A stretch of DNA of 64,000 nt from Chrysaora quinquecirrha (lineage: Eukaryota; Cnidaria; Scyphozoa; Semaeostomeae; Pelagiidae): contig JACTAT010000014.1 of NCBI GenBank assembly GCA_014526335.1, positions 1,311,250 through 1,375,249 on the forward strand, given 5' to 3'. Made by a program: the position numbers and the translations under genes. Below the pieces are notes generated by a model, which did not search any database, was not told the origin of the DNA, and was given only the letters and a program-made list of their open reading frames with translations. Shown here in pieces: positions 29,770 through 62,251 of this stretch (position 1 is the stretch's first letter; each line of letters starts with the position of its first letter).

Positions 29770-30060
29770 TACGCGTTTATAAGAAACCGGTTTATATGAA
29801 ACCCAGAACAATACACCCCAAAAATTAAGACACTTTTAGAACTAGGAGGAAGGAGTTAAGAAACTTTGGAAATTTATACAATTTCGTTAATATAATAATC
29901 ACTACTAATTTGCTTGTTATATTCACGTTTTCTTATTGTTTTGATTGCAATTTATTTATCAAGAAACTTTTAAGAAATTTTAGAACTAAAATTGGGCCAA
30001 CAAAGTTAATAAACTTTTAGAACTACGCCTCGAGCCAGGTTTCTTATAAAAAAGCGTGTA
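29770..30060. mobile_element. Family D element, AAGAAAC subtype (copy D10)
   Basis: Left end TTACGCGTTTATAAGAAACC; right end GGTTTCTTATAAAAAAGCG then TGTA. The interior includes TTAAGAAACTTTGG, TCAAGAAAC and TTTTAGAACTAGGAGGAAGG. The last string recurs inverted in the fragment at 58998-59104. Confidence 0.75.
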
Positions 30061-33800: not shown

Positions 33801-36800
33801 GCTGTTTGTGCCAGCTGTTGTATGAAAGTGTGAAAGATAAAAAGCTTATGCGATAGTTTGAGCAATTGAGCAAATAAGGAGGGGGTATTTGGGGGGCTCT
33901 GGAAACCGTAAGACCGCTCAAAATTTGCTCAAAAACCGTAAAAGCGTGCGATATTTTGAACAAAACCGTATGGCACGATGTTTGATATCCGTTTTACAAA
34001 ATTGCTTAGAATCTATTAAACACTCTAGGTTAGTCAACTTTTACAGTTCACTTCACGTTTTTGAGACGTTTTTTTCCCATAAAAACTCTTGTTTTCAATG
34101 CAGGCTAACCAGTACCTAAAACGCAAAATCTTAATCAAAAACTGAAAAAATTATCCAGAAATTCCTTTCAACCGTTCACCGACGATATTTTCAAAACCGC
34201 AAAACCGCGTAATTTTTCGGGAAAAAACCGATAATCAAAGCCAAAATATTGGCAAAACCGTGTACCCGTAGTAATTAAAACCCAGACAACCCCTCAATAA
34301 GAAGCATATAGAAGAACTTGAAGCAAAATTGAGGTTCCTTATCGAAAAATTAGTAAGAAGACTTCTATGTTATTTCCTTTCAACAGGTTGTCGTGTCGCA
34401 TGATAATAACCTGAAAAGAGTTTCTGGAGTTGATGTCAATATTAGTGATTTAAAATATGAGGTATCATCAGTATTCATAGTCATAAGCTTTTAAATTGTT
34501 TTTATTGGTATTTAGGGATCGTCTCCAATTATTCGTATCAAATTCGTATGATAAAATTCGTATTATTATACGATATTATACGATTTTTTGTATACAGTTT
34601 TTAACAGATCAAAGTAACCAGAGTCTTGTATTAAATTAAATTGTTGGTTTTTCTTCTTTCATTTACTTGTATTTTTTCACTGATAAGAAAATATTTCACT
34701 TCCTTTCTGTAGAATCTCCCGTTACTATCAGAATCTTTGGAGGTGACATTTACAAACAGTAAGTTATCTCACATCGTAAACTGCAGACTATTCTTCAAGG
34801 ATCAAACATCTAGTTATTTGGATAATATACAATAAATATATTGCTGATGTGTGGATATAATCAAGTTTGATTTAAGAACCTTTCAGACTACGAAAAGTAC
34901 ATTATGAATCAGTGTCATAGCCTATTTTAAACGACATCAACTTGACCGACTGACCATACTGAGACATTCTTGGGCTACAATCATGGACAAAATTCTTGAA
35001 AAAATTCTGAAAAAGTAGGTTCAAATCCCTTATTGCCCCACTTAGCTCCCTTCCCCAGTTCAATGTTGGATAATCTGTGTCATTTACATCAGAACTAACC
35101 GCTTTATCATGTGGGTGACAATGTGTAATGAAACCCGTGAGAAAGGGATCAACATTGATTGGAAGAGGCTGGAGACATAGACCCCAAATCAATATGAATG
35201 AGAATTTTTCTCAATATATTTTGTCCATGATTGTACGTTTAAAGGTTTAAATTGAAGTAAGATGCGGAGTAAATTGCTGGATGCGAAATAAGAAATTTGA
35301 AGAGACTTTAATAATCCGAAAATACATTTTCTTCTTTCAGGAGAAATCTGCAGAGGCTGTGATGATAGACAGATACCACTTCTTAAGGACGTCTTCGAAG
35401 AATTCCCCAAATTGCCAATAAATTTGGATATTAAAATTTACAACGAAGAATTAATTTCACTAGTAAGTCAATGTATTAAGTTATTAGCATTAAGTAGTCA
35501 GATTTCGAACCTTGCAATTCAATTGTCTTGATTCCTGTACGATTTCGAACTGTGCATGTACTTTTCAATATTTTAAGAAGACAATAACATCAACTTGATG
35601 TGCACACATCAATGCTCCATCAGCTGAGCTACACGCAGTTTTTTTTTATAAGCAACTTAGCTCGGGCCTAGTTCAAAAAGTTGCTTATTTTTGGACCTCT
35701 TATGGCCACCTTTTAGTAGCCAAAGTTGCTTAGTAGTTGCTTAATTTTAACTGTATCTTTTTACCCTAAGAATAGAATAGAGGCTAGAAAAACAGCAAAT
35801 TCTAACATTCCACATAAAATAACTGGAATCATTTCGCCCTGCTGGTATTGTTACCATTTACAGACTTTGTATTGAAAGTTAAACGGAAACCCCTCAACGA
35901 AATGCCTCACTTAACGAGAAACACTCCGTTGATATGCGAGTTTTGACGACAAATGAATGAAAATAGCTTCTATGTTGATCAATCCTCGATTGCTTGCAGT
36001 GATATAGATTATCAAAAATTTAAAAAGTTGCTTAGGGTTTTTTCCTGTTGTACTATACGTTGCTTAAAGTTTTAGGCCTTCTACATCTTGGTTGCTTATA
36101 AGTGGTTGCTTATAAAAAAGCTGCGTGTGAGCTACTTAGCCACGGGCTCACGATGACTCTTGATAGTACCAAATGCTGTGATTGCTTTTTCTAATCAGTG
36201 CATACTTGATATAAGGGCACCAATATAGCCAACTATCACTGCATACTATACACGTCTGGCAGGTCATCGGACGGCCCCTGACTTTCTTAATGACTATCAG
36301 AGCAACCCCTAAGAGATAGCTAAAATTCTTTCATTAGCCGGAACGGCAAAGCGAAGTGGGCTCTACGGGAGAAGGGGGATCGGAGTACTAGGAAAATCTT
36401 TCAAAACATGCCCTTAAGAACCTTGAAAATGCACTTAACGTGTCCCCTTATTAATGACTGTTTATGGAATGACCTTAGAAAGTCTTTAAGCATTGTACGA
36501 AACAGTACGAGAATTTGTCAGTGGGCCCTCTTTGAAATAAGGGAGAATACGCCACTAGCCAGCCCTAAAGTACGCTTTATCTTAGCCCTCACAGTTGCTC
36601 AGTTTTGCTTAAATCGTCTTGGTGCCTTCCCTGCTAAAATGACACAGTAGTTTAAACTAGTAAGAAATACATTGGTGTATAAATAAAGCGAGTTGAACTA
36701 GAAAAGGTTAACAACAGCAACAAAGTCCTGTTGTACAGTTGCGTAAAGCTTCTTCGCTTAACCCTTACGTTGCCAATCATTTATGTGATCTTAGATCTAG

Positions 36801-39800
36801 TTGCTTATAAACCGGTTTTGTTTTTAGAAGGTGTACTCTGCTATAAGTGAGATTTTTGGACCTGACAAGTTTCCATCTCAAAATTTTCTTACCTGGTTTT
36901 TACACAGATCTTCCCATTCCAGGTTCATAAGATGATTTGCGATTTTAACAGAAAGGATATTACTGTTTGGGGCAATGTGAAAGCAAAAACCACGGAAAAG
37001 TTATATAAATTAGTAAGCATACTTTTGAATTTACACTAGTCCTATTTACTTGCAATTGGCTAGCAATTTTACTTACAGGTGGCTTGCATGCAAGGATTCC
37101 ACAGGTAAAGGATCGTCAAATTTGATCATGAACTTCTCGGCTCTTTTGATGATCATGCTAGCAAGAACTGGTCAGGGGCGGACTGGCAGGGATGCTAGGT
37201 TGCGATTGCAACCCGGGCCTTCGCATATAGGGTCTTTGCTTGTTATAGGCCTATAGAGTCTTTAACAAATTGTTTCTGTTGTTTCTTGAGCAAATCTCTT
37301 CGATTTCTTGGGATTTCGAAGAGATTTGGACTGGTTTCGCTCAGTATGAAAACAGTTGGAAATGACAGAAATTGTTTCTCAATGCAGATAATTGGAAAGA
37401 AGTAAAAATAAAAAGATAATCTGCTTATGCGCAAGAAAATATGGAAGCAAGAAAATATAGAAATGCGAAAATATGTATTAAAGGGAGACGATTTTGCCAT
37501 CGAAATATCCCAAATAAGAAAAGAAGTATTAACATAAACAGTAGCCCTTGCCTTGAATTGATTTTTTACACAAGGGCTCGCTAGAAACAACTAACAAGAG
37601 AAATTGCTATAGTGAAAACAGGCCCCTTTTACTGGAAATAGCAACCCTTGAGATTCGCTGCCAGTCCGCCTCTGGAACTGGTTCATAAAGTTTTTGTCTC
37701 GCATGCCCAATTATCGGATTAAAGTAGAGGACAAAGATGTAATTTTTAAGACCCTTGACACTTTAAGTTCGCTCCATGCAAGTCGCCTGTAGCACTATTG
37801 TAAACCGTCCTTCAGAAACTCGTGCGACGTCACGTTTTCTCTAGTATTGAAATCTTAACAGCAAAACCCTTTAAATTGATAGTCCGTCGGCCTTCATAGA
37901 ATTATCTTTTTGTACATGTTATGCTTCTTGACTGACTATTGCCAAACTGCACCATCAGAGGGTAATGTGTAAGATCGAGACAATTGAAAAAACATCTGGG
38001 GCACAGCTTAAGAATACTTGTGAAGTGATAAGCTGTGTTTTGGAGCCCTATTTTTTCTGCTACTTCGACTGAAATTTTCGAGCCCAGCTTTTTGTCACAA
38101 GAGCTCATTAGGATCTCAACGGTACAGTGTGCAGGACTCTGGCCAAACGGTCAAACATTGCTAATAAAGCAAATTTCAAATGTTTGAAGAGCAATGTTTG
38201 ATCGTTTTGTACGAAATTCCCTAGTCAAATGCAATGTCTGACAATTTAGCCACATTAAAAAACATTGCTTGTCAAACCTTTTATCTTGATAAAGGCATAA
38301 AATATTTTGAAGCTTCATTGAGCGTATTCAGCTCATCAAGCAGTGTTTCATGACGTGGCGAAACGGTCAAACATTGCTTATAAAGCAAATTTCAAATGTT
38401 TGAAGAGCAATGTTTGATCGTTTGGTACGGAATTCGCTTTTCAAATTCCATGTTTAACCATTTAGCCACCTCACAAAGCATTGCTTGTCTAACAATTTTG
38501 CTTGATAAAAGCATAAAATATTTTTGAAGTTTTCAAAATCATCACTGAGCAGATTCAGCTCGTCAAGCAGTGTTTTATGACGTGGCCAAACAATCAAACA
38601 TTGCTTGTAAAGCAAATTTCGAATGTTTGACGAGCATTGTTTGATCGTTTTGTACGAAATCCCTTGTCATATGCAATTTTGACAATTTAGCCACCTTAAA
38701 AACATTGCTCGTCAAACGGTTTATCTTGAAGTATAAAATATTATTGATGTTTTCAAAAGCATTGTTGGGTGAATTCAACTCGTCAAGCAGTGTTTCGTGA
38801 CGTGGCAAAACGGTCAAACATTGCTTGTAAAGCAATTTTAAATGTTTGATGAGCAATGTTTTATAGTTTGTTCGGAGCCAAAGAGTTATTCAAAACAAGA
38901 AAACCGGCGAATTCATGAAAGCATATCCTGCTCTGAAAATTTCATTCAATAGCTTAGTTCAATACATGTTCTCAGGAATAATACCTTCAGCGTAATAAAT
39001 TAAACAGTCGAGATCACTTTTTATCGTTTCAGGATCCAGATATACCACTTCTATTTTCATTCAAAAGATGTATCATTTTGCTAATCGCCTTTTACACTGG
39101 CTTTCTACCATTTCTTCCAATAAAAGAGAGTTACTTAGAAGTCATCATGCCTTCGCCTTTCTTAAGGTACGTAAGAATCTAGGTGTACTATCACTACTGA
39201 TTTTAACCATCTGGAAAAATTAACGAATTTGTATGCTTTGTACCAGAGCGGACAGGGGCTCTATAAGGAAATTTTATCTCGGACCCCGTCAGCTTTTGGT
39301 TTAAATGTTTTTGAACACAGGAACAGCATGAAGAAATTTCTGTTTTCCTTTTAAAAATAGATAAGATTCTATTTCTTAGTTGACTATACGAATAGTTTTT
39401 GTTGTTTTTTGTAATAAAAAGTTCTATTAGAAGAAAAGTGGTAATGAAATATTATACAGCAAAACTGTATTCAACCTAAAGTACACGAATACGCACGAAG
39501 AGTGATCGGCAAGGACAATTCCTGGTCCCAAAAATACACAGAATATTTCAAATTAAAAAAGTTTTTGCAAAACTTTGATTGCCTACTTGTAAGTAACTTT
39601 TCAAGTTTTGCTTGGGCCCCTAGCTCGCGAGCCATTAAGTGTTGCTCTACCCTCAACCGCCCTCAACATAAATCCATTACGCCACCAGGAAATCTGTAGC
39701 TCTTTAAACGCTGGCCTGCACGTAATCTTCTTGTAGCTTTGGCACTCCTCATTTATTCCCAATAAATCAAGATTGGATATTTGAAAAGAATCTTATTGAT

Positions 39801-40804
39801 ATTACTTATAGGGGAAGATTTATAGCCAAGTCAAGCAAAGTTCCGAATTTACACTGAACACTTCAGTTCTGCTTAAATCTAGGGGGTAGGGGTGTTGTTG
39901 ATAACAACGATAGAGATGAAAGATAATACAGTAGTAGAGGTACACGACTTGTCATATTCATGCCTGTGGCCTCCATTAATCGAGTATTTATTGTATTTTA
40001 TCTGATATTTTAATTTTTTTTTCTTTCCAGATGGAAAGACTTGATGTCAGGAAGATTACAGCGATTTATGGTTCGGACAATAGATTTGTAAGTCGTAGTT
40101 TGATTTTCACATTGTGACTATCCATTTGATGCCTGGTTTAACTACATGAAACTCACAGGTTAACTAAGCGATACCTCCGCCTTGGCTGTGACGCTACCGT
40201 AGCTGGGGCTCGAACCCCGACCTCGCTGAGCTTCTGACTACAAGAGTCAATGGAAACAGCGATGTCAACGATAGCTAGAAAGTATTCCAAAACTTAACTA
40301 AGTAACCTGTAATACTGCTTGCTAAATGCATCAAGATCAGGGTGAAGTGAAAAGACAGCTAATAACCAGAGATGTTTCTCGTTTGGAAGTACAAAACTAT
40401 GGAATAGCCCCTCAGCCGGTTTTGCAGAATCTCAAAAAATCACCAGGATTGGCATCTGTTTTGTACACTTACCACTGTACCTTTGGTGGCTAAGATAACT
40501 CGGCCTAATAGAGAGGGTGGCTTATTTTGAATCGGCGCTTGAAAGAGTGGGTCTTCATAAGGGGGCTTATAAGGGACAGGGGGCTTGATAGAGCTTTACT
40601 GTAACCCCTAGGGAGCTACTGTTGACGAAAAGTTTTACCCTTGTGCGAAAGAGGACAGGCAACCTTTTACTAATGTTGAAACCTATTTTCTTTTTAGATT
40701 GGTTTCGTTTCCTACTTCTTTTGAACCTACATGTTTTCTTGATTTGTTGTAGTTTCTTCATGAACTCTTGGTTATTCAAGCATTTAGAAAAACGAGGGAT
40801 CCAG
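30837..40804 (+). CDS. GDPD1: GDPD1/GDPD3-like glycerophosphodiester phosphodiesterase
   Basis: Ten exons: 30837-30972, 31320-31362, 32647-32707, 34387-34461, 34713-34758, 35341-35462, 36923-37012, 39033-39166, 40031-40087 and 40753-40804. All have GT-AG borders and compatible phases. The N-terminus is a hydrophobic segment (residues about 2-24) followed by HISHRGGAGENLENT. Catalytic motifs are the H and R of SHRGG, E and D of MIELDV, and H of VVVSHDNN. Later motifs DVFEEFPKLPINLDIK and ITVWGN fit GDPD1 (GDE4), and a second hydrophobic stretch (ILLIAFYTGFLPFLPI) lies in exon 8. In mammals these membrane enzymes cleave lysophospholipids (lysophospholipase D); the same role here is inferred. 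The family's last 40 or so residues are missing after KHLEKRGIQ. Reading through the last donor adds 20 hydrophobic codons to a TGA at 40865-40867. GDPD3 is an equally possible ortholog. Confidence 0.88.
31085..31218. mobile_element. Family A 134-bp MITE in GDPD intron 1
   Basis: Begins CGAGGGGCAACTCACTCC and ends GAAATGCCCCTCG; reverse orientation of 3099-3232 with the same length. The interior has GAAATCCCTTGGAAGTCC and ATCTCGTAC words. Confidence 0.75.
31932..32115. mobile_element. Hairpin MITE with about 36-bp arms
   Basis: ATGAATAGTATAACCAGAAG at the left is inverted as CTTCTGGTTATACTATTCAT at the right, with further pairing (CTTAAACATTAT / ATAATGTTTAAG). Lies in GDPD intron 2. Confidence 0.75.
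32270..32589. mobile_element. Element W8: iterated GGGTTTTC words
   Basis: Ends TGAGGGGGGCTTTGGG and CCCCAAAGCCCCCCTCA are near-perfect inverted repeats. The interior repeats GGGTTTTCGGGTTTTCC, GGTTTTTGGG, GGTTTTGGG, TCAGGTTTTAAACC, GGGTTTCCAGG and GGGTTTTCTGGTTTT. Lies in GDPD intron 2. Confidence 0.75.
32905..33272. mobile_element. Family E element with about 90-bp inverted arms
   Basis: Left arm ATTGCGATAAACAGCGG, GGGCATGCTTAAAAGC, CTGACACTCCTCGGAG, CGTCAGAAACAGACC; the right arm is its inverse ending ATGCCCGAAAATTCGCAAT. The interior holds several CCAATCA words. Related copies at 51913, 56356 and 63108. Confidence 0.8.
33868..34303. mobile_element. Element W7: iterated AAAACCG words
   Basis: Interior repeats AAACCGTAAGACCG, AAAAACCGTAAAAGCG, AAAACCGCAAAACCGCG and AAAACCGTG, with weak inverted ends (AATAAGGAGGGGGTATTTGGG against its diverged complement CCCAGACAACCCCTCAATAA). 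GDPD intron 3. Confidence 0.55.
34516..34600. repeat. ATTCGTAT word cluster next to GGGATCGTCTCC end
   Basis: GGGATCGTCTCCAATT is followed by ATTCGTATCAAATTCGTATG, AAATTCGTATTATT and the inverted TATACGAT twice. This end matches the element at 17812. The right border is not found. Confidence 0.5.
35631..36128. mobile_element. Family D element, AAGCAAC subtype (copy D2)
   Basis: Ends ACACGCAGTTTTTTTTTATA and TATAAAAAAGCTGCGTGT. All eight word sites read TAAGCAAC or GTTGCTTA, including paired sites AGTTGCTTAGTAGTTGCTTA and GGTTGCTTATAAGTGG. The layout parallels D6 at 49364, where the sites read GTTCCTTA. GDPD intron 6. Confidence 0.85.
37173..37674. mobile_element. hAT-type non-autonomous element with 8-bp target-site duplication
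   Basis: Left end CAGGGGCGGACTGGCAG and right end CTGCCAGTCCGCCTCTG are inverted. They are flanked by the direct repeat GAACTGGT at 37165-37172 and 37675-37682. CAGGGGCGG ends and 8-bp duplications are typical of hAT elements. No transposase frame. GDPD intron 7. Confidence 0.88.
38138..38880. repeat. Four tandem family B units of 215-225 bp
   Basis: GGC(C/G)AAACxGTCAAACATTGC or a variant recurs near 38143, 38357, 38584 and 38804. Each is followed by AGCAATGTTTGATCGTTT (or variant), a FIxCATAAAATATT-coding spacer and CTCATCAAGCAGTGTTT. A 93-codon - strand frame is incidental. GDPD intron 7. Confidence 0.8.
40155..40262 (-). mobile_element. tRNA-derived SINE-like copy
   Basis: On the - strand it has GTCGGGGTTCGAGCCCC (B box-like) and TACGGTAGCGTCACAGCC, shared with the + strand copy at 53272-53415. 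GDPD intron 9. Confidence 0.6.
40496..40612. repeat. GGGGGCTTAT word block
   Basis: GAGGGTGGCTTATTTTG, AAGGGGGCTTATAAGGGAC and AGGGGGCTTGATAGAGC occur together, ending with ACTGTAACCCC. It may be a small relative of the AATAAGCCCC element at 45553. Confidence 0.4.
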
Positions 40805-40867
40805 GTATGGCTTCTTTTTATAATTAGCTTTAAATTTCTTACTCATTTGGTATTTGTGATTAATTGA

Positions 40868-42037
40868 GGGAGCTTAATGGAGCTTCCGAAGCTTGTCTTA
40901 ACCAACGCCATCATGCAAATATTTTGTACTGCCAGTAGACCTGAAAGATTTATCAGTCTCTGTTGTTGCAACAGAAAGGCAATGTAGTAAAGAAGGCGTC
41001 GGGAGAAGGCAATAGATATACACGGTGAATGCCAAGTGAATACTACCCAACTTTTCCCCCAGGGTGAATAGGCCTCTACGTGAAACTTCGCTGTCCATAT
41101 TCGACCCTTGTATCGACCTTTTCAGTTCGTAATTTGATTGGCTGCTGGAACAAAAGAATCGATTAAGTGACTTCACGATGTCATCAAAACATCACACCGA
41201 AATAGGCCGAAAACCATGTGAAAAACATGTTTTAAAACCCAAAGAATGATGCTTCATACGGTATTGTGTCTTTCCTGAAAGTTATCAAGGAAATTCTTCG
41301 CATCTTCATTGCTTAGAACATCTGCTTTCAGAACTACATCGTTTTTTTTGCCTTGGCCAAAATTACTAGTATTTTAGCCGATTTCCATGGCCGGTACCAG
41401 GGCCCAGATCGATTGACCGAGATTTGACAGTGAGATTCGAGCAATTTCGGTTAGGGCCAGGAGACGAGGGATTTTAATCTTGAATATAACTATCTTGTTT
41501 TCCCGTGTTTACTGCTGTTCGCATTTTGGTGACAACTTCGTGTTGGCTGTTTTCACGTTCTTGTTAAACATTAAAAACCAAACTGTTGTATTGTTGTGAC
41601 AACAATTTTCAAAACTGTATCGAAACCAGGCTAGAAAAGTTGACCATGTAAACACTGGCTAGCCAGTGTGGGGCTACTCTTAGGTGCCTAATTGCTGCAG
41701 GGGTAGGAATAGGCAGGGGGTTGGAACTACCTTCAGGATCTAATTAGCGGGGGGTCAGAATAAACGGGGTGTTGGACTTTGTTTGACAAACTTTGTATGG
41801 AAACTGCTGAAACGTAAAGCGAGGGGCCCTATGAAGCCTATAGGCTATGGCAATCCATAGTTCTAACAAACAAATTGAGTGTACAAGTGAAATTTCACAC
41901 CAAGAACGTCAAAGTAAGTTTAGTAAAATAGTTCAACGTCAATATTAATGCAAAACTGATAAGCGGGGGGTCCTAATAAGAGCGGGGGTTGGAAATTTTA
42001 AAAAATCAATTGGCGGGGACGGCAATATCACACAACT
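40868..42037. other. Intergenic, with GGGGG/AATTAGCGGGGG words at 41664-42020
   Basis: I searched by eye for the missing GDPD C-terminal exon (WVLNE, ATGVMTDYP-like) here and on to 43785 and did not find it. Words AATTAGCGGGGGGTCAGAAT, AATAAACGGGGTG and ATAAGCGGGGGGTCC recur near 41740-41990, possibly a degenerate word-type element. Confidence 0.45.
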
Positions 42038-42410
42038 TACACTCTTTTTTTATAAGAACCAGGAAATTTTGATCGAGGCTGGCTGTTCTTAAATTTTTGC
42101 CGTTTTTGAGCCTGAAATGTTCTTAATCTGTTCTTAACTCCCTGGTTAGTTAGACATCTATACTTTTCAATGATTGCCTTGGGTGGTACTAGGTTTGTGT
42201 GAAAATGCAGCATTCTTGTCTATTTCTTTGTTTGCTTGCTTTTTACATTCATTCTGATTGTCTTACTTTCATATTCAGCTGATATTCTTAGGGCTTATGA
42301 AAAGGCCAGCCTCAGCTTGTTCTTATTTTGTTCTTAAAATCTGGGCAAAATCCAGGCTCGTGTTCTTATAAAATTGTTTCCTATGACCCGAGATCACAAA
42401 AAAGAGTGTA
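42038..42410. mobile_element. Family D element, AAGAAC subtype (copy D3)
   Basis: Ends TACACTCTTTTTTTATAAG and AAAAAAGAGTGTA. Seven sites read TAAGAAC or GTTCTTA (for example TGTTCTTAATCTGTTCTTAA, TTGTTCTTATTTTGTTCTTA). The word length differs from the seven-base words of the other subtypes. Confidence 0.8.
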
Positions 42411-42591
42411 TCGCTGTTTTTAGAACATGATATATTTAATTGTCGATTTTTATGGTTATAGTTGATGTATATCATATATGTATTTGCTAGGTCAAAAACA
42501 GGATTTTTATGGTTATAATCGAGTCCAATTGACGCGAAATTTTTTTCGACCGGCGCTATTATTTCTTACCCATCGCACTCGTACCTTAAGC

Positions 42592-42866
42592 TGTGGCTAA
42601 ACTAGGAGACATGTCGTGCGCGACATTGTATTAAGCGTGTCTCCAAGAGTGGCTAAACATGCGAGTGACAAGCGAGCAACATGTCCCCCGGTCGCGGAAA
42701 CAAGAATATTTCCATTGTCTACCAGAAACATTTGCGTGTCTCTCGCTACAAATTTTGCTGCGGGCTGCAAAGTTTCCGAGGTGGCTAAACTGGGAAACAT
42801 CGAGTGGGCATGTCACGCGTGACAATGTCGCGCACGACATGTCTCCTAGCTCAGCCAAGCTTTTAG
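42592..42866. mobile_element. Family C MITE, best-preserved copy
   Basis: Left arm GTGGCTAAACTAGGAGACAT then GTCGTGCGCGACATTG; the right arm is the inverse, CAATGTCGCGCACGACATG then TCTCCTAGCTCAGCC. Interior GTGGCTAAACATGCGAGTG and ACATTTGCGTGTCTCTCGC. Confidence 0.85.
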
Positions 42867-42927
42867 TATCCTACAATTCATTTGTAGGCTGTGACAAGGG
42901 AGAGAAATATGACACTGTGAGGATGTA

Positions 42928-43078
42928 TCTCTTCACAAGTCTCGTACACCTTGACGTTAAATCTTCATAAATCCTAGAAATCTTTTGAATGTGAATCCTA
43001 TAAATTTCTCTAAAACAGACAAAGATACAAGTCCAATGAATCTCGTAGGCCTAGAGTTGATACACCCCTCGAGGCACT
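42928..43078. mobile_element. Family A related copy
   Basis: Contains TCTCGTACACCTT, AATCCTAGAAATC, AATCTCGTAGG and ends in ACACCCCTCG. It is more diverged than the two 134-bp copies, and the left end is unclear. Confidence 0.5.
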
Positions 43079-43785
43079 GTACTCTCAACAGAACGAAACA
43101 ACAACTACTAAGAAACAAAAACTACTCAATGATAAGATGCAGACTCACTACATAAGTCCCACTACCTTGCTCGATGCTGTTGTTGCTGTTTTCTAGAATC
43201 GCTCGGTGTGGGACGTATGGCCTTACAGCTCTGTTGGAGTGACAAATCAAAATAAGGGGAGCGTTAACTAGATACTCGTGTCGCGAATCTAGATAAGATG
43301 TACATATATCGAATGTAACCGAATTAACGTTGGACCTTGAATAATTGCCTGACAGTTACTAAGGGTTCGAAATGAATCGCAAAGTTTTGTGATATGTGTT
43401 TCATTTCCCAAACTTGTGTCTTCTAGCTACTTTTAACTAACTATTGACTACTAGTAGCTACGAGTTTCATTTGATTTAAGGTTAAAACTTCCTGGTTTTG
43501 TTCGTTTTTTAAATGTCTATTGCGTCTGTCTTTACTGACTATGAAAATTTCATGCAATTGAGGATTTTCTGTTGCTGGGATAAGTTACAACAAGGTAAAT
43601 TTCCATAACAAAAAATTACAAAAACATATATATTTTCCCCTTCTATCATGCAAATTACTAAACTCGTTTTTTAATGGCATGAGATTTTTAGCTACTTTGT
43701 AGATGTTTACGGAAGCATGTAGTGCATAATGTAGCATCACTTGCATGTGAGCTGTGCTGCCTAATTTTGCACGTTTAGACCAGAC

Positions 43786-46700
43786 ATGAAGCTGCAAAAA
43801 CCAGAAGAAGCTGAACTAACACTAACTGTCGACGAAAAGAAAGATACAGAACAACACGAGAAAAAGCCAAGTGCATTCGGCACTAGAAGACAGAAAATGG
43901 TATTAATTTCAATTGCATTGTACTGGTTTACTGTCAGTTGTGCATATTCAATGATCGCACCGTTCTTCCCAGGCGAGGTAAGGGATTTATAGATATTGTA
44001 TACTACTTCAGGTGTATCGAGTCAAAGTCCACATAATTTTGTTGCTATGTTTATTGTTTCTCAAGCACCGAAAGCTGAATTTTTCTTTCTTGTGATTACA
44101 CTCTTTTTTTTTATATAAGAAACTAAGATTTTTGGTCAGTACTCAAAGTTTCTTAGTTTTGGGATAAATTTGGTATTGAAAGTTTCTTAGCAGTTTCTTA
44201 GAATCAAAACTTTTAAGTGACAAAACGGGCAATTGACCCTTAAATTCTACAAATAGAAGAAGGAATACAATTCACGTTTACATCAGCTGTTTTTTCTGTC
44301 AAAATAGACACTTATGGTGCAACAGAAGTTTGTTTTCTCGATGCTTTATTTCTAATTCTAAAGATTCTTGAGACCTGCGAGTTTCTTACCATTTTTGGTC
44401 GAGTACTGAAAGTTTCTTAACCAATATTGATCTCAGTACTGAGTTTCTTATAAATGGGTTTCTTAAAAAAAAAATGAGTGTATCCACGCTAGCGAATCTA
44501 TACGCACTACTGTGATGGATAAGCACTACTGTGATGGGTTATAAGTATTATGCTTGATGTGGTGGGATTTTGCTTTGATTTCGTATCCAAAACAGTACGC
44601 AAAAACACGACCACCTCAACATAATAACCCACCACATTAAGAATAATAACCCACCACAGTAGTGCTTATCCGCCAATGTACGCAAAACACCACCACATCA
44701 AGCATAAAAACCTACCACATCAAGCATGATAACCCACCACAGTAGTGCTTTTCCACCACAGTAAGCAAAAAACACCACCACATTACGCAAAATATACCAC
44801 CACAGCAGTGCGTATAGATTCGCTAGCGTGTTGTCGATTACTTGCTAATAACATACGGTAAAACTTCATGTAAATTCACCTTTCTTTTAGACGCCCCCTT
44901 CGAATCAACGCCCCTCGAAATCTTTGAGACATTTTTAAACGCTGTGCCGCGTTTTTTAAGACGCCTTCTTTGCTGAAGAAGGCCGTTTATTTGTGAAATA
45001 GAGGAACATAAGGTATATATTCAAGTACAGTGGAACTTTCATTAATGAAACACTCTACACAACGGGAACCTCTGAAAAAGGACAAATGCTATCATCCTAA
45101 AGGTCGTTTCTTTGCAAAAAACCAACCCTCGTACAGCGGACACCTCTCTACACCGACAATAAAATTGGTCCCACAGGTGTCCGTTATATGGAGGTTTCAA
45201 TGTATCCAGAAACTTTTGGGAGGGGGTTGTATGAACTATTTTTTGGTATTCATATGATAATGAGACATTTTGAAAAGTCAAGCCATAATAGGAGTAGAAT
45301 ATACTACTCAGTTAAACGTTTTAGACCATATCTCTGTCAACTTTGCTGTTAGTTTCCGTGAAAAGTATTGGCGAAACATACGCTGCTGAAGTGCCCATGT
45401 TTTTCTCACAGCAATGGCTTAATAAGAGTTTGTGTAACCATCTTCAGAACTGTAGCGGGTCCCGATTTTGACTCCTGCATATGGCTTCCTAGTAGAGTAG
45501 AGATCTTATCAAGGATTAATGAACTCAGGCAAAGAAATAATGCTGATACCGTAAATCCTCGAATTAGCCCCCCCTCGAATAAGCCCCCTCGAATTAGCCC
45601 CCTTGAATTAGCCCCCTCGAATAAGCCCCTCGAATTAGCCCCCTTGAATTAGCCCCCTCGAATTAGCCCCCTTGAATTAGCCCCCTCGAATAAGCCCCTC
45701 GAATTAGCCCCCCTTGAATTAGCCCCTCGAATAAGCCCCTCGAATTAGCCCCCCTCGAATAAGCCCCATCCTCGAATAGTCCCCCAACCTGACATGTTCG
45801 TGTTAGCCTTTGGGGTTCATAATGGTTCTTTTATCGACTAATGACTGATAAATGTAGTCGCAAAGTCGATGATAAATCATGCTTTTGTGAATAATTTTAT
45901 AAGCCCCCACATCGAATAAGCCCCCCTCCGAAATAGTGAAAAATAATTAAGCCCCCCAGGGGGCTAATTCGAAGATTCATGGTAAGTGCTTTCCCTCCTG
46001 TTGATATTAGGATATATTGCAGTCAAGCATGTAAAACTTTTCTCTTCCAGGCCAAGACCAGAGGTTCAAGCGCAATAATTACTGGACTCATCTTTGTAGC
46101 ATTTCCTCTTACTCTTTTCATTTTCTCTCCTGTCGTTGGAATTGTGGTAAGAACAGATTTTATAAGATTTAATTTTTTGGGAGAGCATGCCCCCAGATTC
46201 ACTAGATACATATTATTTTGCTATAAATGTGCATGTGCCTCGAAACATACTTTTCGTATTGCCTATTTTTTCTACCCTTCTGACCCCCCTTATCAGAGAG
46301 GACTAGGATGCGCCTGCAGGTTCTCGGGGGGGGGGAGGCTTCAGGTCCACATTAGCAATGATTTAGTGACATCGATAACTGTAACTATCGTGGAACCAGA
46401 GGTGATTTCTAAAAATATTAACATGGGGCTCAAGTTGTGACGTCATAAGAGAGGGTTGTGGCTCCTTGTGACCACACCCTTATTTTGATCAATTAGAATA
46501 TGACAACCAATCAGTGCTTAATCAACCAAATTGTGTAAGCAGTAATTACAAAAACCTTAATAACCATAAAAATAGGGGAAGCAAAATAATTGTATTAAGA
46601 ATGTAATTACGGGATGGCATGTTTGCTGTGTTGTGCTAACCAAAGCAAATGGCTTTATTTCTCCCTATTTTACAAACTCATTTACCGACCAGTTTCCGAA

Positions 46701-49700
46701 AAAGGGGGATAGCACCTACCAATTTTGTACCGAAATTCGTTTCTTTGTTAAAAATAACGTCCTTATAGCGGACACCTCTCCACAACAGACAAAAACATTG
46801 GTCCACAGGTGCCCCCTTTATAGGGTTCCAATGTCATTTGTGCTCACCTGCATGATTTCGTTCATTATTTTCCTTTTAGTTGCCATTAATTGGCCCTAAA
46901 TCCACATTAATGCTTGGTCTGTTTATAGAAGGTAGCTCTCAAGTTCTCTTTGGGTACGTTTTTTCCAAGTCAATTATATTATGCTGCCTATTATCTAATT
47001 GTTACCCACTTTCTTTTTGGGTTTAAGGGAGTGATCATTGGAGGAGGTCGGTTTTTCGAGGGGATGCTAATTCAAACTTTTCAAGGTTAGGGCAATGCAA
47101 ACAAATCGGTATTAAGAACTATGCTCTTAAAAACAAAACAGTTCATTCTGTAAATCATGTAAATAAAACATGGGAGTTCAAGCAAGAGTGGAGGGTTAGC
47201 AGTTGTCAGTGCCACGTAAACAAGAAACACGTATTCCAAGAAGAGGTGCGTATTTAAATAAGCGGATCTTTTGAAGCAGAAGGCGATCATTCGAGTAAAC
47301 ACCTCTGTCTGATTTTTGGGGAGACAGTCATTCCAAGGGGGTGGTCATAAGGATGCTTTTTCGAACATTTGAATTAGGGTTATTACCCGAGTCCCAGTTA
47401 TCGCTCAAGAAGTCGACACTAAAGGCCTGGCCAAACGATCAAACATTGTTCATCAAACGTCTGAAAATTGCTTGTCCCATTTGGCCACGTCGAAAAACAT
47501 TGCTCCGCGAGCATTTTCTGTGGAGTTTTTCAAAACATTGCGAAGCAATTCTGGTTGTCAAGCAATGTTTTGCGAAGTGGCCAAACGGTCAAACATATTT
47601 TTTTAAGCAAATCTCAAATGTTTGACCAGCAATCTTTGATCCTTTGGCCAGGGCTTGACACCAAACTGAGCGTTCAACAATTCTATTCAATAACCATAAC
47701 TCATGCGATAACTGCGAGTCAGGTATTCTTTTTGGAATGCTCATTCATAGAAGGTGCTCAGTTGGAGCTGGACGCCCTTTCGAGAAAATACCATATTGTA
47801 CCATCGTTCAAATATTCCTTAACTGAATTTATGAAAATTCATGTTTTAGGTTTTTAGACCTCTTGCCCAATGGAAGAATATTTATTGCGGGGTGTTTTGC
47901 CGTTCGCATCGTTTGTGCCCTTGGGGCATCTGCTACTACCACAGCATCTTTGACGTTGCTTGTTCAGAATTTTCATGAAAATATATCTCCTGCTCAGGTG
48001 AGGTTTATTTTCAAATCTCTGTTACGCAGCGCAAAGATTATTAACATGCATAAAAGGAACATTTTTGCATAACCGAAATTTTCTATGCGTTTCTGTCCCA
48101 CGTCATGTTTGCATCAGGATACCGAAACCTATATTATACCGACTATAGAACAATCTTTAGATGGTACACCCACACCCCCTATTAATGAAAGTCAAATGCC
48201 CCGGAGTTATTGCTATATTCATGACAGATAAAGCAAAGATTTAATCTGTAGTTAAAACACCCAAGAGGGATTGGTCTAATTTCCATATATTGCGGTAATA
48301 ACATGCAATACCAGAATATGGACATAAACTTCCTAACGATGCATGTGAGACGAGGACTGGGTCTAACTGCCATGCATTGCAGTCCTAGCATGCAAGACCC
48401 GGATGTAGGGGTAACCTCCCGAATGAAGCATGTGTGAATTCTTTCCGTCATGAAATCTTCGCATTTTGCATGCTCACCTTTACTTAGATTTGATTTCATC
48501 AATTCGAATTAACATTTAAACGCCCTTCCCACTCTCCCTCTGCTCTCCTTCTTTCTCTGTTCTATTTTCTTCTATTACTCCGCTTTCTTTCCGCCTCCTT
48601 CCGCGGTTGGACTAGTGCATTAGTCACTGACATTGAAACCACTGTCTTAGTCAGGCAGTTCATAGGTTTTGCAGAGGCCAGAGAGCCTGGGGTATCCATT
48701 CGTGCACAGGGGGCGGACATCCTTTCCCTGTTTCACGCACTGACTATGGGAGTAGTTTATCCCTATATAATGCTAAAGGGCTGTAGACAATAGTTACACG
48801 TTTTTTTATAAGGAACACCTTTATAAGGAACTCAAGGCTGAAAATTCCCAAAAAATTAAGGAACTTTAAGGAACTGTCGAGGCTCGGATGAAAAACTAAG
48901 AAACTCTTTTTTGAAGAACAAGACGGTTTGTACGAAAAAGGAACAGAAGTACAATATATTTCCCATCGTTCTTCCCCAAAAGGCTCCATTTATACATAAA
49001 GTTAGAAATGAAGAATATTTTCTATGAATTTGCTGTAAAAATTAGTATTTATACATATCCCACGACAAGGAACAGTATAAGGAACTTTCAGCCTCATTTT
49101 GTTGAAAAATGAAGGAACTCCAGCCTCAACTCAGACCAAAGGTTCCTTATTAAAAAAAAACGTGTAGGCATATGATCCTTCGGCCCCTTGGAGACTACTC
49201 ATTTGTGGCTGATGCACTAACGCCCAACTTCCTGGCATTCTATCCCGATTTGGGAGGATTAATGAGTACTGTAAAGTAAAACGTTATTTGTTAGTTAAAC
49301 CGTTAACACATGTTTGATCTTAATATGTTTGATGTTTGACCTTATACCATAACGAATCACTAGTACACGCTTTTTTTATAAGGAACCTACCTCAAGGCCT
49401 AGTTCTTAAAGTTCCTTATTTTTGGGCCTCTTTTGAGGCAATTGTAGTTCCAAAAGTTCCTTAATAGTTCCTTAATTCTAGGTGCACATGCAGTGGTCTT
49501 AACAATAAAAGAGAGACATTTACATGTGAGCAAAGCTCGAGACTACTCAAAGAAATATTGGATACATGCTTAACGTACAATTTATGTGATTTTCGACTAC
49601 TAATGAATGGAACCGGCTTTCTAATTCTTGATTATTTGCAGTGATAAACGTATTCCATATTCAAAAGTTCCTTAATGATTTTCTCTTTAGTAGTATAAAT

Positions 49701-52700
49701 TCTTTAAATTTTCGGGCCTTCTACATGTAGGTTCCTTATAAAGTGGTTCCTTATAAAAAAAAGCGTGTAAACATTTTCTAATTCAGATACAACAGAAAAC
49801 GTGACTTTTTATTCTTGTCTTGTTGATTTTATTTTCTAGGGTGTCATGGAAACATTTTATGGTGTAGGAATGATGGCTGGTCCCCCTATTGGAGGCTTTC
49901 TATACACTGTAAGTGCAATATTATTCCGAGGTACACCACAGTTTCGAATCTGAATTGTTGACATGTGTGGAGCTGAGTAAATGCACAAGTAAGTTGTGGT
50001 AGTTATATCTTGGGTACTGTGAACTAGGCTTTACGCTAGATTATCTTTTCGATACTATGTTTGTAGGTTGGTGGATTCAAATTGCCATTTCTTGTTCTTG
50101 GAATCATAATTCTTTGCAGCCTGATTCCAATGTGCTGCGTCCTTCCATCTGATAAAGGTGAAATAAACGTAATATACAAAACGTCATTGTTGCCTCGGGT
50201 TGGGGGGATCTTGATAGGTTTGAGGTACGGGGACGTGCCATTATTCAGGGGTACTTTCGTTTGTTCTCAAAAGTGCAGAATTATCGGTATTATTTTCAGA
50301 AGTGATTTCGGAATTATGGGTACCATTGCAGGAAACCTGCGGAATTATGGGTACTATTCTGGAGATGTTTTGCAGAATTATTAGAAAGCAAGCTTAGCAT
50401 TTATGAAATGAATATCCAGTCAGAGCTGGTGCTGCACTTTAAACATTACACGGATACAGTACCATCAGATGATTTTGTTGTGTCTGAAAAATGTTCTTTG
50501 CCTTGCGGAATTATGGGCAAATTATTCATCTATTTTGCGGCATAATGGGTCACAATTTCTACCGGGTTTGCGGAATTATGAGTCACAATTTTTCTGACAT
50601 GGGCGGAATTATGGGTCCGAAATTTGAACTAAAATGGCACGTTCCAATCCTAAACTAAGCTTAGATCCCCCCGAGGTTGTTGCAAGTAGTGTAAGTAGCG
50701 TCTTTTTTCAACAATCCTCTGCCTTTTACCTTAAATCTTCATAAAAATTAAGTTCAATTCATATCAAGAGATAATACTTGCCTCAGTTATTTACCAAAGC
50801 ATATTTTAGCAGAGATATATTGAGGTGTTTCAGCCCTCTTGCCTTTCTATCATCTCTTGCCGAGAAGGGAATCTCCCTCTTTCACTCTTAGGCCTTTGCC
50901 AAGCAATCAAACATTGCTTGTCAAATATTTCAAATTTGTTTGTCAAGCAATGTTTGAACGTTTGGCTATGACTAAAACAATGTTTGACAACCAAAAATAA
51001 GCCAAAATTGTTTCGTAATGTTTATGGTAATTTTAAAAACATTTTTGCTTAACGCGAGCAAGACATGTTTTACGAGCAATGTTTGTGACATGGCCAAAAG
51101 GTGAAGCAGTTTTACTTGATCAGCAAAGTTCAAATATTTGACTGACAATGTTTGATCATTAGACCCTGGCCAAACAATCAAACATTGTTGGTCAAACATT
51201 TGAAATTGGCTTGTCAAGCAAAATGTTTGATCGTTTTGCCACTTACAAAAACATTGCTCGTCCAAAATTTTTTGCGCGGGCCAAGCAAAAAATGTTTTTG
51301 AATTTTTTCAAAAACATCACGCCGCAAATTTCGCTTAGTTTTGCTTGTCAACCAATGCTTGATCGTTTGGCCTCCTTTCCAACATCGCTTGTCAAACATT
51401 TCTTTTGTTTTTGACAAACTGCAACTGGTTGCAACATTTCACCACCTAGCAACATTTCTTAGCAACAAGACGTTCATGCTTGTGCATTAGCAATAACATC
51501 GTTGTTGGACAGCAATGTTTTTGGACGTGGCCAAATGGTCAATCATTTGTTTTAAAGGAGATTTTAAATGTTTGACCAACAATGTTTGATCGTTTCTGCC
51601 AGGACCTTAGATTAAATCATATAGTGAGTGTTGGTTTAAGTGTTAACAATTACATCTGCTTTTACAGAGAAGAAAAAAGAGGAAATTAACAAAGGTGCGC
51701 TGTGGCAAGCAATCAAAATCCCTGCTGTTGCTATTGTCGGTATGAGCTTCTATTTTTGAACTATCAGTTAATAAAAAGTACGTCTGTAAGCTTAAGTTAA
51801 GCTCTCATTTATCAATTAGTAATCGAGAATCAATCAATCAATCAAATCAACCATTGATTAAAATAAATCGATCACAGAATCAATCAGCCAATCAAATATA
51901 TCATTAATCAAAATTGCGATAAAAGCAGAAACATTTGGAAGTACTTTGAAAGCTTTTTGTCCTGACACTCCTCGGAGTAGAGATAAACTTCGGTAATAGA
52001 CCAAAACAGTTGACCATGGCGGAGGAAGTACCCAATTGTGGATCGAAAAGCGCCAATCAGAAATGCGAAGCTAGACTTTTGTTGTGTTTTGAACACCAGT
52101 CACCTCACAGGACACAGAGAGAAAACCAACAGAAATTTGGTTGAAGAGTGTATGTGAGGATAGGAACTCTTTCTGTCTGCGCAAACCGACTTTGTCGTTT
52201 GAAACAATCGTCTTCCATTGCCATTTTTATTGAAACCATGTGGCTGCAATTTGCTGCACAGTTTGGGTAATTAAGTTAATGTGTTTCTATGGCAGAATCA
52301 TTTTAAGCATTGTTCCTAACAACAGTTCCATACAACAAAGTACTTTCTCGGTCTTCGTCTTGCATAAGCGTTAACTTTTTAGAATATACCCTGCTGCATC
52401 AGAGATATCCTTTTAATGTAGTTTTTCTATTTCTTGTAGCCCTGTTGACTGCAGTTGCAGCTATGGTGTTGAGCTTTCTTGAGCCATCGTTACAAAACCA
52501 TCTTTTACCGGTTTGTAAAAAAGACTATTAGCTAAATAACGCCGTTAACACCGTTAAGGAAGTGCTGCTCGGGCAGCTTTTACGCCTGTCAATGTTGAAA
52601 CTAATTTTAGCCACCCTTTGCAAGCTCAAGTCAAAACAGCCCGCCATATTGTTCACAAGATGAAATGTGAATGCCATTCCTTGCACATGCGCAACAACGA

Positions 52701-55700: not shown

Positions 55701-58700
55701 CGCACTTCCTGCCACTAATCACACTTATGTGATTACCCCTGGGGGGACAGCTTGACACTTAATCTCGTTGGAATCTCGTTGGCACTCTTATTATCCTTGT
55801 TCCTTCTTTGGATCTACTGGGGATCTCCAAGACTCAAACACTTGTTCAGAAATTTATACCGTATCTATGATTCGCGTTATTTATTCACTCTTCTACCTCA
55901 TTTTGTAGTTCTTTATGGCTGAATGGTGTGTCATTGGCGTTAGTCGGTATTGGAGCTGGGCCATTTATTGTTCCCGGTATATCTGATATGAGTGCATCTA
56001 CAGTGTAAGTCAAATGCCTGATTTTTTTTTATTTTCGAACACCTTTAAGCATACACTTTTTTTAATAAGCAACTGTTCAATAAGCAACCAGGGCTGAAAT
56101 TGTGCTAAAATTTCTGGTGAAATACAGTAGCTTTCTTTATACTGTACATCCTTGCAAACTTGTCAGTTACATTGAGAAGCCAGAAAAGAGCCAAAATAAG
56201 AGGTTTTAGGGGGTTAGATATGTTAAGCAACTCTTGAGGGCTGGACCAAAGTCAAGTTGCTTATTGAAAAAAAAAGTGTAGTCAATAGAAAACTATTGAC
56301 TATTGACTATTGACTTTGAATTTTCTATTGACTGTCCCTTTACTAGTCCGCGTCAGTCTTGTGTCTCGGTCTGTTTCTGACGTTTATACTCTGAGGAGTG
56401 TCAGACGTGTCAGAGTGTCTTTTCGTTGTTCATCCCAATTCGATTATCTGTTGTAGGAAATATGGCATGGCAGATGATACATCAACTCATAGTGCACTGG
56501 CGTCAATTTTAATGCAATGATGAATATGGGGTAAGACTGTGATTTCACAATCTAACACACGCTATTGTTTTGCTGAATTGAAAATAATTACACTCTGAAC
56601 AACGTCTACGATTGCCCTAGGCTACGATTGCCCCAGATTCTGAATTAACAATATCCATGTGCGGGAGGAGAACCTTGGGCTGTATGACTTGGAGAGTTAA
56701 TCGGCGATTTCATTGAGCTCTGTAGCTCAGTGGAAACATCGTTGCTCTCTGATCATGCAGTCCAGGTTCGAATCCCATCTATTGTGGTATGCCACTTCTG
56801 GAAAAATCTATCCTAGTGTTCGCGATTCATGACCAATATGAATTGAAAGAATATACTGATGTATAGGTATGCATGCCTTATAACGTCCTATAGGAAGTAG
56901 CTATCTGGAGAAAATTAGCCGATTTTTAAATCATTAAAAATCTAAAACGACTAGCAGAGCCTTTTTAATATTCATATGAATTTTTCTCATCTTTTCTGTC
57001 TTTGTAGGGCTATTGCAGGACCCACTGTCGGAGGTATATTGGTAGAATACACAAACTTTTCCTGGGCATCAACGGTAAAATAGTTGTTTTTCTACTCGAG
57101 TCGGTGCTCTGTTGATTCGTTTATGCCAAAATTTCGTCCTGCCATGTAGGACTTCTTCGGGGCTAATGAGAATAAAATCTCTTTTTATGAAAACGTGTAG
57201 CGAATCGGCGAGAAACCAATAAACCGGGGCGGCACCTGTTTGCACCACTTCTTTTTTTGTGGAGTGAACCCCCCATCGACCCAGAGTGACCGCAGCAAGC
57301 AAGCAAGCATTTTATTTGTTAAGGCAGGTTGGAGGGTATGGCAGCTTGACACTGATGTGGACCTGCAGCTTGTTCACCCGACTGATATTCTAGAACGAAT
57401 ACCCTGGGTACTCATTTACCGACCTCGGAAGGATGGACTAAATGCCGGGGCGAAATGTTAGCTAGTACGTAAAAATATGAATTTTTTTGTTGTGACGTTG
57501 ATTCGTCCTTTTTGCAGCGTTACTGCTTCACTTATCAGTGTTGATGATTTAACGATCGAAATTAATTTTCTCTAAAATCGTTTGTTTTTTTTCAGATATT
57601 TGGCTTTTACATATTTCTATGGGTAAGCTTATAAAATCTATGGGTTCCGTAGTAATTTTTGTGTTATACAGTACTTATAACGTCGATTTGGAGATGCTTT
57701 GATATGGAAACTGGTTGTATCAACTCCTACACTTCTGCTGAAATTATCATTGATTTGCTTATATTCTATTTTCTAACCGTGAAGATGAACAAGGAAAGTT
57801 CGAAACATGTGATACATACAGCCAAAAGTGGCCGTGCCAGTGCTGAGACAGTGCTGTGACGTTTTTAGTTTTAGTATAAACACTTTCTTACGGTGGCTCT
57901 ACTGTGGTTGGACTCTTGCTCTACCGCGGTAGTGCGAACATAAAAATTTGAATTTGGTTTAATTTTTCCGACCGTTATGACGCTTCTGCCACTAGGAGAT
58001 TTTAATGGAAACATGTGGCACAGCTGTCGGCGACGTGTCTGTGGCACTTGCCTATGATTTCACTGCGCACATGACTGTAACAAGCCAATCAAATGCGAGG
58101 AAATATGAAACCATTTTATAGCAACCACTGTCTCAGCACTCGTACATTTGTGTCTCATCACTGGCCCCGTCACGTATTGCTATAGGGAAGCGAAGCGTCG
58201 ACACACTTTGTCAGCGCTAGTGCAGCCGTTTCTCAGCACTTGCACAGCCACTCATGACTGTATGGAAACCAAGCTTTATTTACCCTATCGACTGCTAGGC
58301 ATGCTTCTGTGGGAAATAAAAATAGCGCGCAATGAAAAAATTCTTGAAAGATTACTTAGCAATGCTACTTCACCTTCCTATTGTACTGTGCATAAATTCA
58401 TTTGCAGACTGCTGTTCTCGCCATATTTACAATTTACGAGAGACGAGGCAGGAGGTAATGTTTTGTAAAGTTAAAATTCTTATGCTTGTTGTTTTACAGT
58501 AGACATACTACATGAGTCGTAGTTATCGCTATTGAACTGAACCGCTGGACGCTCAAACTAACAAGTCCCAAAGTTTAAAGGAAACAAGTCCCTGACTGAA
58601 GCGAACAACAACAACATCAATTCAATTCAATGTGAGCGAAAGTTATAGGGACTTGGGATGCAAGCCAAGGACGCCGAAGGGAGGGGTACTTGACTATCCG

Positions 58701-61852: not shown

Positions 61853-62251
61853 TTTGCCTAACAATCAAACATGGTTTGTCAAACATTTGAAAACAAAATT
61901 TGAACATTTGGACAAGTAACACGTCAAAAACATTGCTGGATGGGTAGAATTTGCTAAGCAACGTCTTTTGCTGGGCGAAAGAAACAAATGCACACTTTTT
62001 TTATAGGAATATCCTAATTTTTGCCGAGGCTCGAACTTTTCCATTGTTATTCTTAAATTTCCATTGTTCTTTGGCAATTTTGAGCCTGAATATTCTTATA
62101 GACTGTATTCTTATAAAAAAAGTGTGTGTTTGACATGACGAACAATGTTTTTCGACGCGACCAACGGTAAAACAGTTTGTTTCACAAACAATTTCACAAA
62201 CAATTTTCAAATGTTTGACAGACAATGTTTGAACTTTCGGTCAGGACCTAG
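61853..62251. mobile_element. Family B element carrying a nested family D element
   Basis: GCCTAACAATCAAACATGG at the left and CAATGTTTGAACTTTCGG then TCAGGACC at the right. The interior repeats AAACATTG words. It is split by D8 (61991-62126). Confidence 0.75.
61991..62126. mobile_element. Family D element, AAGAAT subtype (copy D8), 136 bp
   Basis: CACACTTTTTTTATAGGAAT and TTCTTATAAAAAAAGTGTG are inverted ends. The word is TATTCTTA (three times), a further variant of the family word. It is inserted in a family B element. Confidence 0.78.

What the first reader, a model, noticed from the sequence alone, without database searches (positions are those of the whole stretch)
35631..49769. Family D transposons: a repeated internal word changes in concert within each copy
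Elements with ACAC-T-run-ATAAG ends contain four to nine copies of a seven-base word. In D2 (35631-36128) all eight sites are TAAGCAAC/GTTGCTTA; in D6 (49364-49769) all seven are AAGGAAC/GTTCCTT; in D4 (44097-44482) all eight are AAGAAAC/GTTTCTT; D5 is AAGGAAC with one exception; D3 is TAAGAAC; D8 is AAGAAT. D2 and D6 align along their length with shared flanks (GGCCTAGTTC, GGCCTTCTACAT), so word sites are homologous, yet the variable base changes at every site together. Independent mutation cannot easily do this. Possible causes are co-evolution of sites with a recognition factor, copying from one site to all others, or a templated rewriting process.
Basis: seen in the sequence. Interest (0 to 1): 0.88.

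Follow-up and report, generated by a model that had tools for sequence, protein, structure and literature searches.

The report
Transposons whose repeated words switch together
Thousands of short mobile DNA elements in one animal-like genome each carry about eight copies of a short word at set places; the copies agree within an element, yet related families use a different letter at every place, which looks like binding sites that follow a changing DNA-binding protein.

Summary
The window lies in a 328-Mb assembly, probably of an animal. The elements are short (about 140-500 bp) with inverted ends and TA target duplications and no coding sequence found: MITEs. Full-length copies have about eight words TAAGNAAC at similar positions in all families. 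Two adjacent words occur 5,750 times (reversed control 1) and agree in 5,475 (95.2%). On one contig 49 of 52 elements have the same base in four words spanning both ends (maximum of 5,000 shuffles 28). The D2 and D6 families align along their length (70% identical outside words) and are C and G at 8 of 8 homologous sites; a third, probably related family is A at all eight. A, C and G each have families; no T family was seen (1 T/T pair of 5,750). Pairs of other words, nearly all TAAGAACA or TAAGAATA in the 100 listed, number 2,062. In six families a second motif beside the word is also homogenised. One subfamily with 7 of 8 words matching has multiplied, so change can go site by site. Best explanation: binding sites coevolving with a transposase or other protein, which was not found. 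Nearest precedent: Arabidopsis VANDAL motifs. New variant of a known kind.

The parts
35631..36128 (-). D2, family C1: MITE with 8 of 8 words TAAGCAAC
49365..49768 (-). D6, family G1: MITE with 7 words TAAGGAAC and one decayed site
44098..44481 (-). D4, family A2: MITE with 8 of 8 words TAAGAAAC, second motif CAGTACT
48796..49165 (+). D5, family G2: six words TAAGGAAC with one TAAGAAAC at element position 101, also in other copies of the family
42039..42409 (-). D3, family E3: words TAAGAACA
5823..6072 (+). D1, family C2s: short MITE, 4 words TAAGCAAC
56053..56279 (+). D7, family C2s, close copy of D1
29776..30059 (+). Decayed copy of family A1 (TAAGAAAC), one TIR at 30043-30059
58961..59103 (-). 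Partial copy of family A1, 4 words TAAGAAAC
61990..62129 (-).

Best explanation
These are non-autonomous DNA transposons (MITEs) with 2-bp TA target duplications. Their roughly eight regularly placed words are binding sites for a protein needed for their mobility, most likely the transposase of autonomous relatives that were not found. In several families each word is one half of a bipartite site, the second motif lying 1-4 bp downstream. When a lineage's protein changes specificity, selection on mobility replaces the sites one after another, and copies with matching arrays are the ones that multiply, so each family ends homogeneous for a new base. Shown: similar layout, homogeneity within copies and across both ends, word-by-word homology between the C1 and G1 families, lower divergence of words in most families, a single-site intermediate, absence of a T family in the pattern counts. 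Inferred: that the factor is a transposase and that its specificity changed.
For: Similar positions in the A-, C- and G-word families. 5,475 of 5,750 adjacent pairs agree; 49 of 52 elements agree across four words at both ends. C1 and G1 are C and G at 8 of 8 homologous sites, and A1 aligned with them is A at 8 of 8; of the 168 fixed-position letters at these sites one departs. Within six families, words other than the two used to find copies differ from consensus at 25 of 1,252 letters against 435 of 7,977 elsewhere. C-to-T changes are common among mixed pairs (31 of 172 assigned) yet only 1 T/T pair exists. An A2 subfamily reads A,C,A,A,A,A,A,A in both copies read, and 11 listed places carry its first two words and spacer. 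Second motif in A1, A2, A3, C2, G2 and T9: its frequency was reached by 0-5 of 500 shuffles.
Against: No transposase or other protein was tied to these ends; the 150 scored DDE_3 matches could not be linked and none of them lies on C1. No array split half and half was seen (0 of 52 elements, four words each), although a site-by-site switch must pass through such states. The second motif is not significant in C1, G1, C2s or, as a 6-mer, E3, and is weaker in T10 (12 of 500). Words are not less diverged in every family: C2s 2 of 64 word letters against 18 of 702 elsewhere, G2 variable base 2 of 33; the 30 copies are not independent. C-to-A changes (37) outnumber C-to-T (31) among assigned mixed pairs, which plain decay does not predict.
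Confidence: 0.7

Rival explanations
1. The words bind an element-encoded accessory or anti-silencing protein (as VANC does in VANDAL elements) or a host repressor or activator, not the transposase; the arrays changed to follow or to escape it.
For: VANC21 and VANC6 motifs are short, family-specific words, some differing by one base (PMC5735166). Eight sites exceed what simple TA-target transposons need (recalled).
Against: The outermost word lies inside each TIR at a near-constant distance from the tip, which fits a transposase site. In VANDAL the motifs grow by tandem repeats; here sites keep their places.
Confidence: 0.2
2. Gene conversion or templated rewriting copies one word to all other sites of the same element.
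For: Sites agree within an element. In A1 and C2 about 19 bp (word, TTT or TTTT, second motif) are shared between several units.
Against: Between C1 and G1 the bases next to each word stay orthologous while the word base differs. A single-site variant persists in a multiplied subfamily and an A word persists at one place in G2. No T arrays although T mutants arise.
Confidence: 0.06
3. Ordinary descent only: each family inherits one founder, and the words differ because founders assembled their arrays separately by duplicating one unit.
For: Uniformity within a family does descend from a founder: assigned mixed pairs in G families are mostly transitions (46 of 63), as neutral decay would give.
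Against: C1 and G1 share arrays site by site with distinct spacers, so the array predates their split; they are 60% identical with words removed against a maximum of 49 in 60 shuffled pairs.
Confidence: 0.04

Closest known systems
VANDAL21/VANDAL6 elements and VANC proteins of Arabidopsis (PMC5735166; abstract, two results sections and the discussion read)
   Same: Short family-specific motifs, repeated many times per element, differing by single bases between relatives (C-type YAGTATTAC, T-type YAGTATTAT), evolving with a sequence-specific protein.
   Different: Plant elements of the MULE group (recalled); motifs spread by tandem repeats. Here sites keep their places in MITEs of a few hundred bases with TA duplications and the letter changes at each place.
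Galileo (P superfamily) of Drosophila with THAP sites in its long TIRs (PMC3688188, passages read)
   Same: More than one binding site per end (one footprinted, two found by sequence match); limited cross-binding between coexisting subfamilies.
   Different: TIRs of 0.5-1.2 kb; the G-subfamily site had no significant match in the other subfamilies; no word homologous by position with one changed base.
Herves and other hAT elements with repeated subterminal motifs (PMC3143072, passages read)
   Same: Short repeated transposase sites near the ends; one ambiguous base in the motif CG/AATTCAT.
   Different: hAT elements (8-bp duplications, recalled); the passages describe no set of families with a switched letter.
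Tc1/mariner transposons with IR/DR ends such as Sleeping Beauty (recalled)
   Same: TA duplication, bipartite recognition by a paired-like domain, repeated sites.
   Different: Usually two sites per end; here about four per end; no transposase found.
CMITEs of Acropora corals (PMC2872659; part 1 of 4: abstract, introduction, part of the methods)
   Same: Animal MITEs with an unusually conserved internal region.
   Different: Linked there to piggyBac-like elements; these have TA duplications and another architecture.

Membership tests
MITE | Short (under about 500 bp), TIRs, no coding sequence, high copy number | tested here: met
   Copies of about 140-500 bp with ACAC...TAAG TIRs; 5,750 plus 2,062 paired-word ends. 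No stop-to-stop frame of 110 aa or more lies inside the ten window elements. Longer copies L056 and L067 hold insertions, longest frames touching them 149 and 153 aa.
Tc1/mariner-like (TA target) | 2-bp TA target duplication | tested here: met
   T before ACAC in 29 of 31 and A after GTGT in 27 of 31 copies; no longer duplication at k 2-10. Two of the 31 rows were mis-bounded by the script (window 62018; L025:661, which by eye has T/A). D2 has TA/TG.
Tc1/mariner-like (TA target) | Related autonomous element with a DDE/D transposase and the same ends | tested here: inconclusive
   150 of 251 DDE_3 candidates scored and matching, none of these on C1, not linkable; PF03184 searches not answered.
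Stowaway-like MITE | CTCCCTCC-type termini (recalled) | tested here: not met
   Termini CAC followed by 0-5 bases and a T run.
hAT, P/Galileo, MULE/VANDAL | 7-9 bp target duplication (recalled) | tested here: not met
   D2 alone among those read has a 7-bp flank repeat, in tRNA-like sequence.
piggyBac, PIF/Harbinger | TTAA or TWA target duplication (recalled) | tested here: not met
VANDAL-type motif evolution | Motifs multiply as tandem repeats | tested here: not met
   Sites at shared positions with distinct spacers in C1 and G1.
VANDAL-type motif evolution | A protein of the element binds the motif | not testable with these tools
   No protein identified.

The most novel reading that the evidence does not exclude
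The genome carries at least five coexisting, mutually insulated transposition systems whose address is a two-part site. The first half (TAAG+A/C/G+AAC, TAAGAACA or TAAGAATA) and the second half (AGAACTA, CAGTACT, GAGGGCT, GAGGCT) switch separately and at all sites of an element, giving a natural series of protein-DNA specificity changes with the permitted letters and single-site intermediates preserved.
Probability: 0.35. Interest if true: 0.75.

Novelty: new variant of a known kind. Interest (0 to 1): 0.6.

Why it matters
How a DNA-binding protein with many sites can change specificity is an open question, because all sites must follow. Here one genome holds two clearly related families, and probably a third, whose eight sites have each become C, G or A, over seven thousand paired-word ends, and a subfamily caught with one site changed. 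Finding the matching transposases would give paired protein and DNA changes that can be tested directly.

Tried and rejected
Chance: rejected. Words duplicated after divergence: rejected for C1/G1. Relatives elsewhere: pattern scans of viral contigs gave 0 and 2 stretches and of genome contigs 11; none of these 13 has more than three words within 500 bases of the match, so no array. Autonomous copy: L056 (1,518 bp) and L067 (about 2 kb) carry insertions without a recognised transposase (no domain search was run on them); the DDE_3 search could not be linked. The large window ORF with DUF6729 has no TAAGNAAC between 9222 and 24586. L066, taken as a possible G/C mixed family, shows only two exact words and is not a recognisable array. 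Coral CMITEs are another group. Paper searches on subterminal repeats with coevolution or co-evolution gave 0 papers; concerted evolution with MITE terms gave 2 (listing only). No printed description of these elements was seen in the listings; the library is open-licence papers only. A tree of families was not built: only 8 of 55 family pairs exceed the shuffled maximum with words removed.
Full report
WHAT IS THERE. The window belongs to a 327,998,173-base assembly of 740 contigs. Named relatives of its DUF6729 protein are from sponges, cnidarians, fish and other animals, while the closest hits are unnamed, so an animal genome is likely but the species was not identified. The elements have inverted ends ACAC..T-run..TAAG and TA duplications: T precedes the left end in 29 of 31 copies and A follows the right end in 27 of 31, with no longer duplication at any length from 2 to 10 (two rows were mis-bounded by the script, window 62018 and L025:661, the latter by eye also T/A). 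No frame of 110 aa or more lies inside the ten window elements; two longer copies contain other insertions.

LAYOUT. Read from the end with two close words, a full-length copy has words at about 15, 30, 61 and 92, then three more about 280-330 into the element, all in one orientation, and a last one in the opposite orientation inside the other TIR. On the first side the steps are about 15, 31 and 31 in A1, A2, A3, G1, C1 and C2. On the second side they are 11, then 34-35 in A1, A2, A3 and C2 but 45 in G1 and C1, then 31-33. G2 differs (steps 15, 33, 10, 30 on the first side), C1 has a longer middle, and C2s is a shortened form with four words.

HOMOGENEITY. Among 35 copies with 211 exact words, 566 of 592 within-copy pairs agree, against 6,878 of 21,563 between copies; the best of 2,000 shuffles reached 248. 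Only four copies, all G2, had more than one word type. At least two of the 35 (L027 and L037) lie in a duplicated segment, and most were fetched because their first two words match the pattern. Genome-wide the pair of adjacent words at one end occurs 5,750 times (reversed control 1). Unequal pairs: 77 starting with C, 60 with G, 107 with A and 31 with T (plus one T/T). That is 275 of 5,750, or 4.8%. In the 100 places listed there were 38 G/G, 34 C/C, 25 A/A and 3 mixed; random pairing would agree about a third of the time (my arithmetic). The pair near the other end (4,673 matches, control 0) was mixed in 5 of 100 listed (by eye). Joining 100 listed B-ends with 78 of the 100 listed A-ends, those on contig C1 up to 4.66 Mb, gave 52 elements; 49 had one base in all four words, the three others differed at one word, and 5,000 shuffles reached at most 28. 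The pair 31 bases apart occurs 3,635 times (control 23); letters were shown for 22 rows and all 22 agree (by eye). Pairs of the form TAAGNAHW add 2,062 (control 9): of 100 listed, 93 are equal pairs of AACA or AATA and 7 are mixed, none of the AACA/AATA kind (by eye).

HOMOLOGY BETWEEN FAMILIES. The D2 family (C1) and D6 family (G1) align along their length, 70% identical over 326 columns outside words. With words removed before aligning they are 60% identical against a maximum of 49% in 60 shuffled pairs. At 8 of 8 homologous sites they read TAAGCAAC and TAAGGAAC; the only departure at the fixed positions is one base of the third G1 site. So these sites are older than the two families and the letter changed at each. 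The third family, A1, is TAAGAAAC at all eight sites aligned with them and shares stretches beside the last words such as GAACTAGGCC and CCAAAAAT, but outside the words it is only 55-58% identical, and with words removed 52% to G1 and 49% to C1, where other pairs such as A3-C2 reach 51%; its relationship is probable, and its site-by-site match is helped by the words themselves. C words occur in C1 and C2, G words in G1 and G2, A words in A1 and A2/A3, and most alignments between these groups are at background level, so the same letters appear in groups not shown to be close relatives; whether by repeated change or by deep shared ancestry is not settled.

SECOND MOTIF. Following the word by 1-4 bases many families repeat a second, different motif: AGAACTA in A1, CAGTACT in A2 and A3, GAGGGCT in C2, GAGGCT or a form of its complement in G2, E3, T9 and T10. 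A shared 6-mer this frequent was reached by 0 to 5 of 500 shuffles in A1, A2, A3, C2, G2 and T9, by 12 in T10, and was not significant in G1 (238), C1 (259), C2s (75) and E3 (333). The site is therefore probably bipartite in several families.

HOW IT CHANGES. Of 268 listed mixed pairs 172 could be assigned by spacer. Those in G families are mostly G to A (46 of 63), as ordinary decay would give; C families show C to A 37, C to T 31, C to G 13; A families A to C 18, A to G 5, A to T 5. The excess of C to A is unexplained. Eleven of the A-to-C cases share one spacer. Two of these copies were read: both have A at seven sites and C at the second only. A copy with one altered site thus stayed mobile and multiplied. 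G2 keeps one A word at the same place in several copies. Excluding the two words used to find copies, words differ from family consensus at 25 of 1,252 letters, other positions at 435 of 7,977 (Fisher p about 1e-8, copies not independent; C2s does not follow, 2 of 64 against 18 of 702). T is supplied by mutation but no T family was seen. These facts fit selection for binding better than copying of tracts.

MECHANISM. I read the words as binding sites of a protein required for mobility, most likely a transposase recognising a two-part site, with array members replaced one by one after a change of specificity. The protein step is inference. The precedent is VANC/VANDAL, where related elements carry C-type or T-type motifs and the authors argue that proteins and motifs evolve together, through tandem repeats (PMC5735166). 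Galileo shows limited cross-binding between coexisting subfamilies (PMC3688188) and Herves repeated short subterminal sites (PMC3143072). What differs here is that the sites keep their places, several letters coexist in one genome, and an intermediate is preserved.

LIMITS. No transposase linked. Sampled letters come mainly from one contig and the window, and 30 loci were chosen because they matched the pattern; 34,431 of 354,867 bases held were N. Whole arrays were read in 36 entries, one of which (L045) is not an element and several of which are near-duplicates, plus L064 and L065. Family names are mine. No half-changed array was seen, which the stepwise reading must explain as rarity.

Noticed in passing
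window 38137-38877, 47422-47656, 50880-51595, 61865-62232: Another element type with many TCAAACATTG/TCAAACATTT words on both strands; AAACATTG occurs 40 times in the window. It might show the same kind of word variation.
   Followed up: no
window 19558-21732 (-): 724-aa open frame with a DUF6729 domain; relatives in many animals, best listed hits 59-63% identical.
   Followed up: partly
window 35611-36160: D2 lies in what by eye looks like tRNA-like sequence and is flanked by a 7-base repeat TGAGCTA, unlike the TA of other copies.
   Followed up: partly
window 45560-45780: Tandem array of CTCGAATTAGCCCC-like units.
   Followed up: no
window 44485-44830: Nested inverted and direct repeats ACTACTGTGATGG/CCACCACA next to D4.
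   Followed up: no
L067 200-1300: A C2 element interrupted by an insertion that by eye consists of repeats of very roughly 150-180 bases.
   Followed up: no
G000, pattern counts: No T family of the word was seen although C-to-T mutants are common: 1 T/T of 5,750 pairs.
   Followed up: partly
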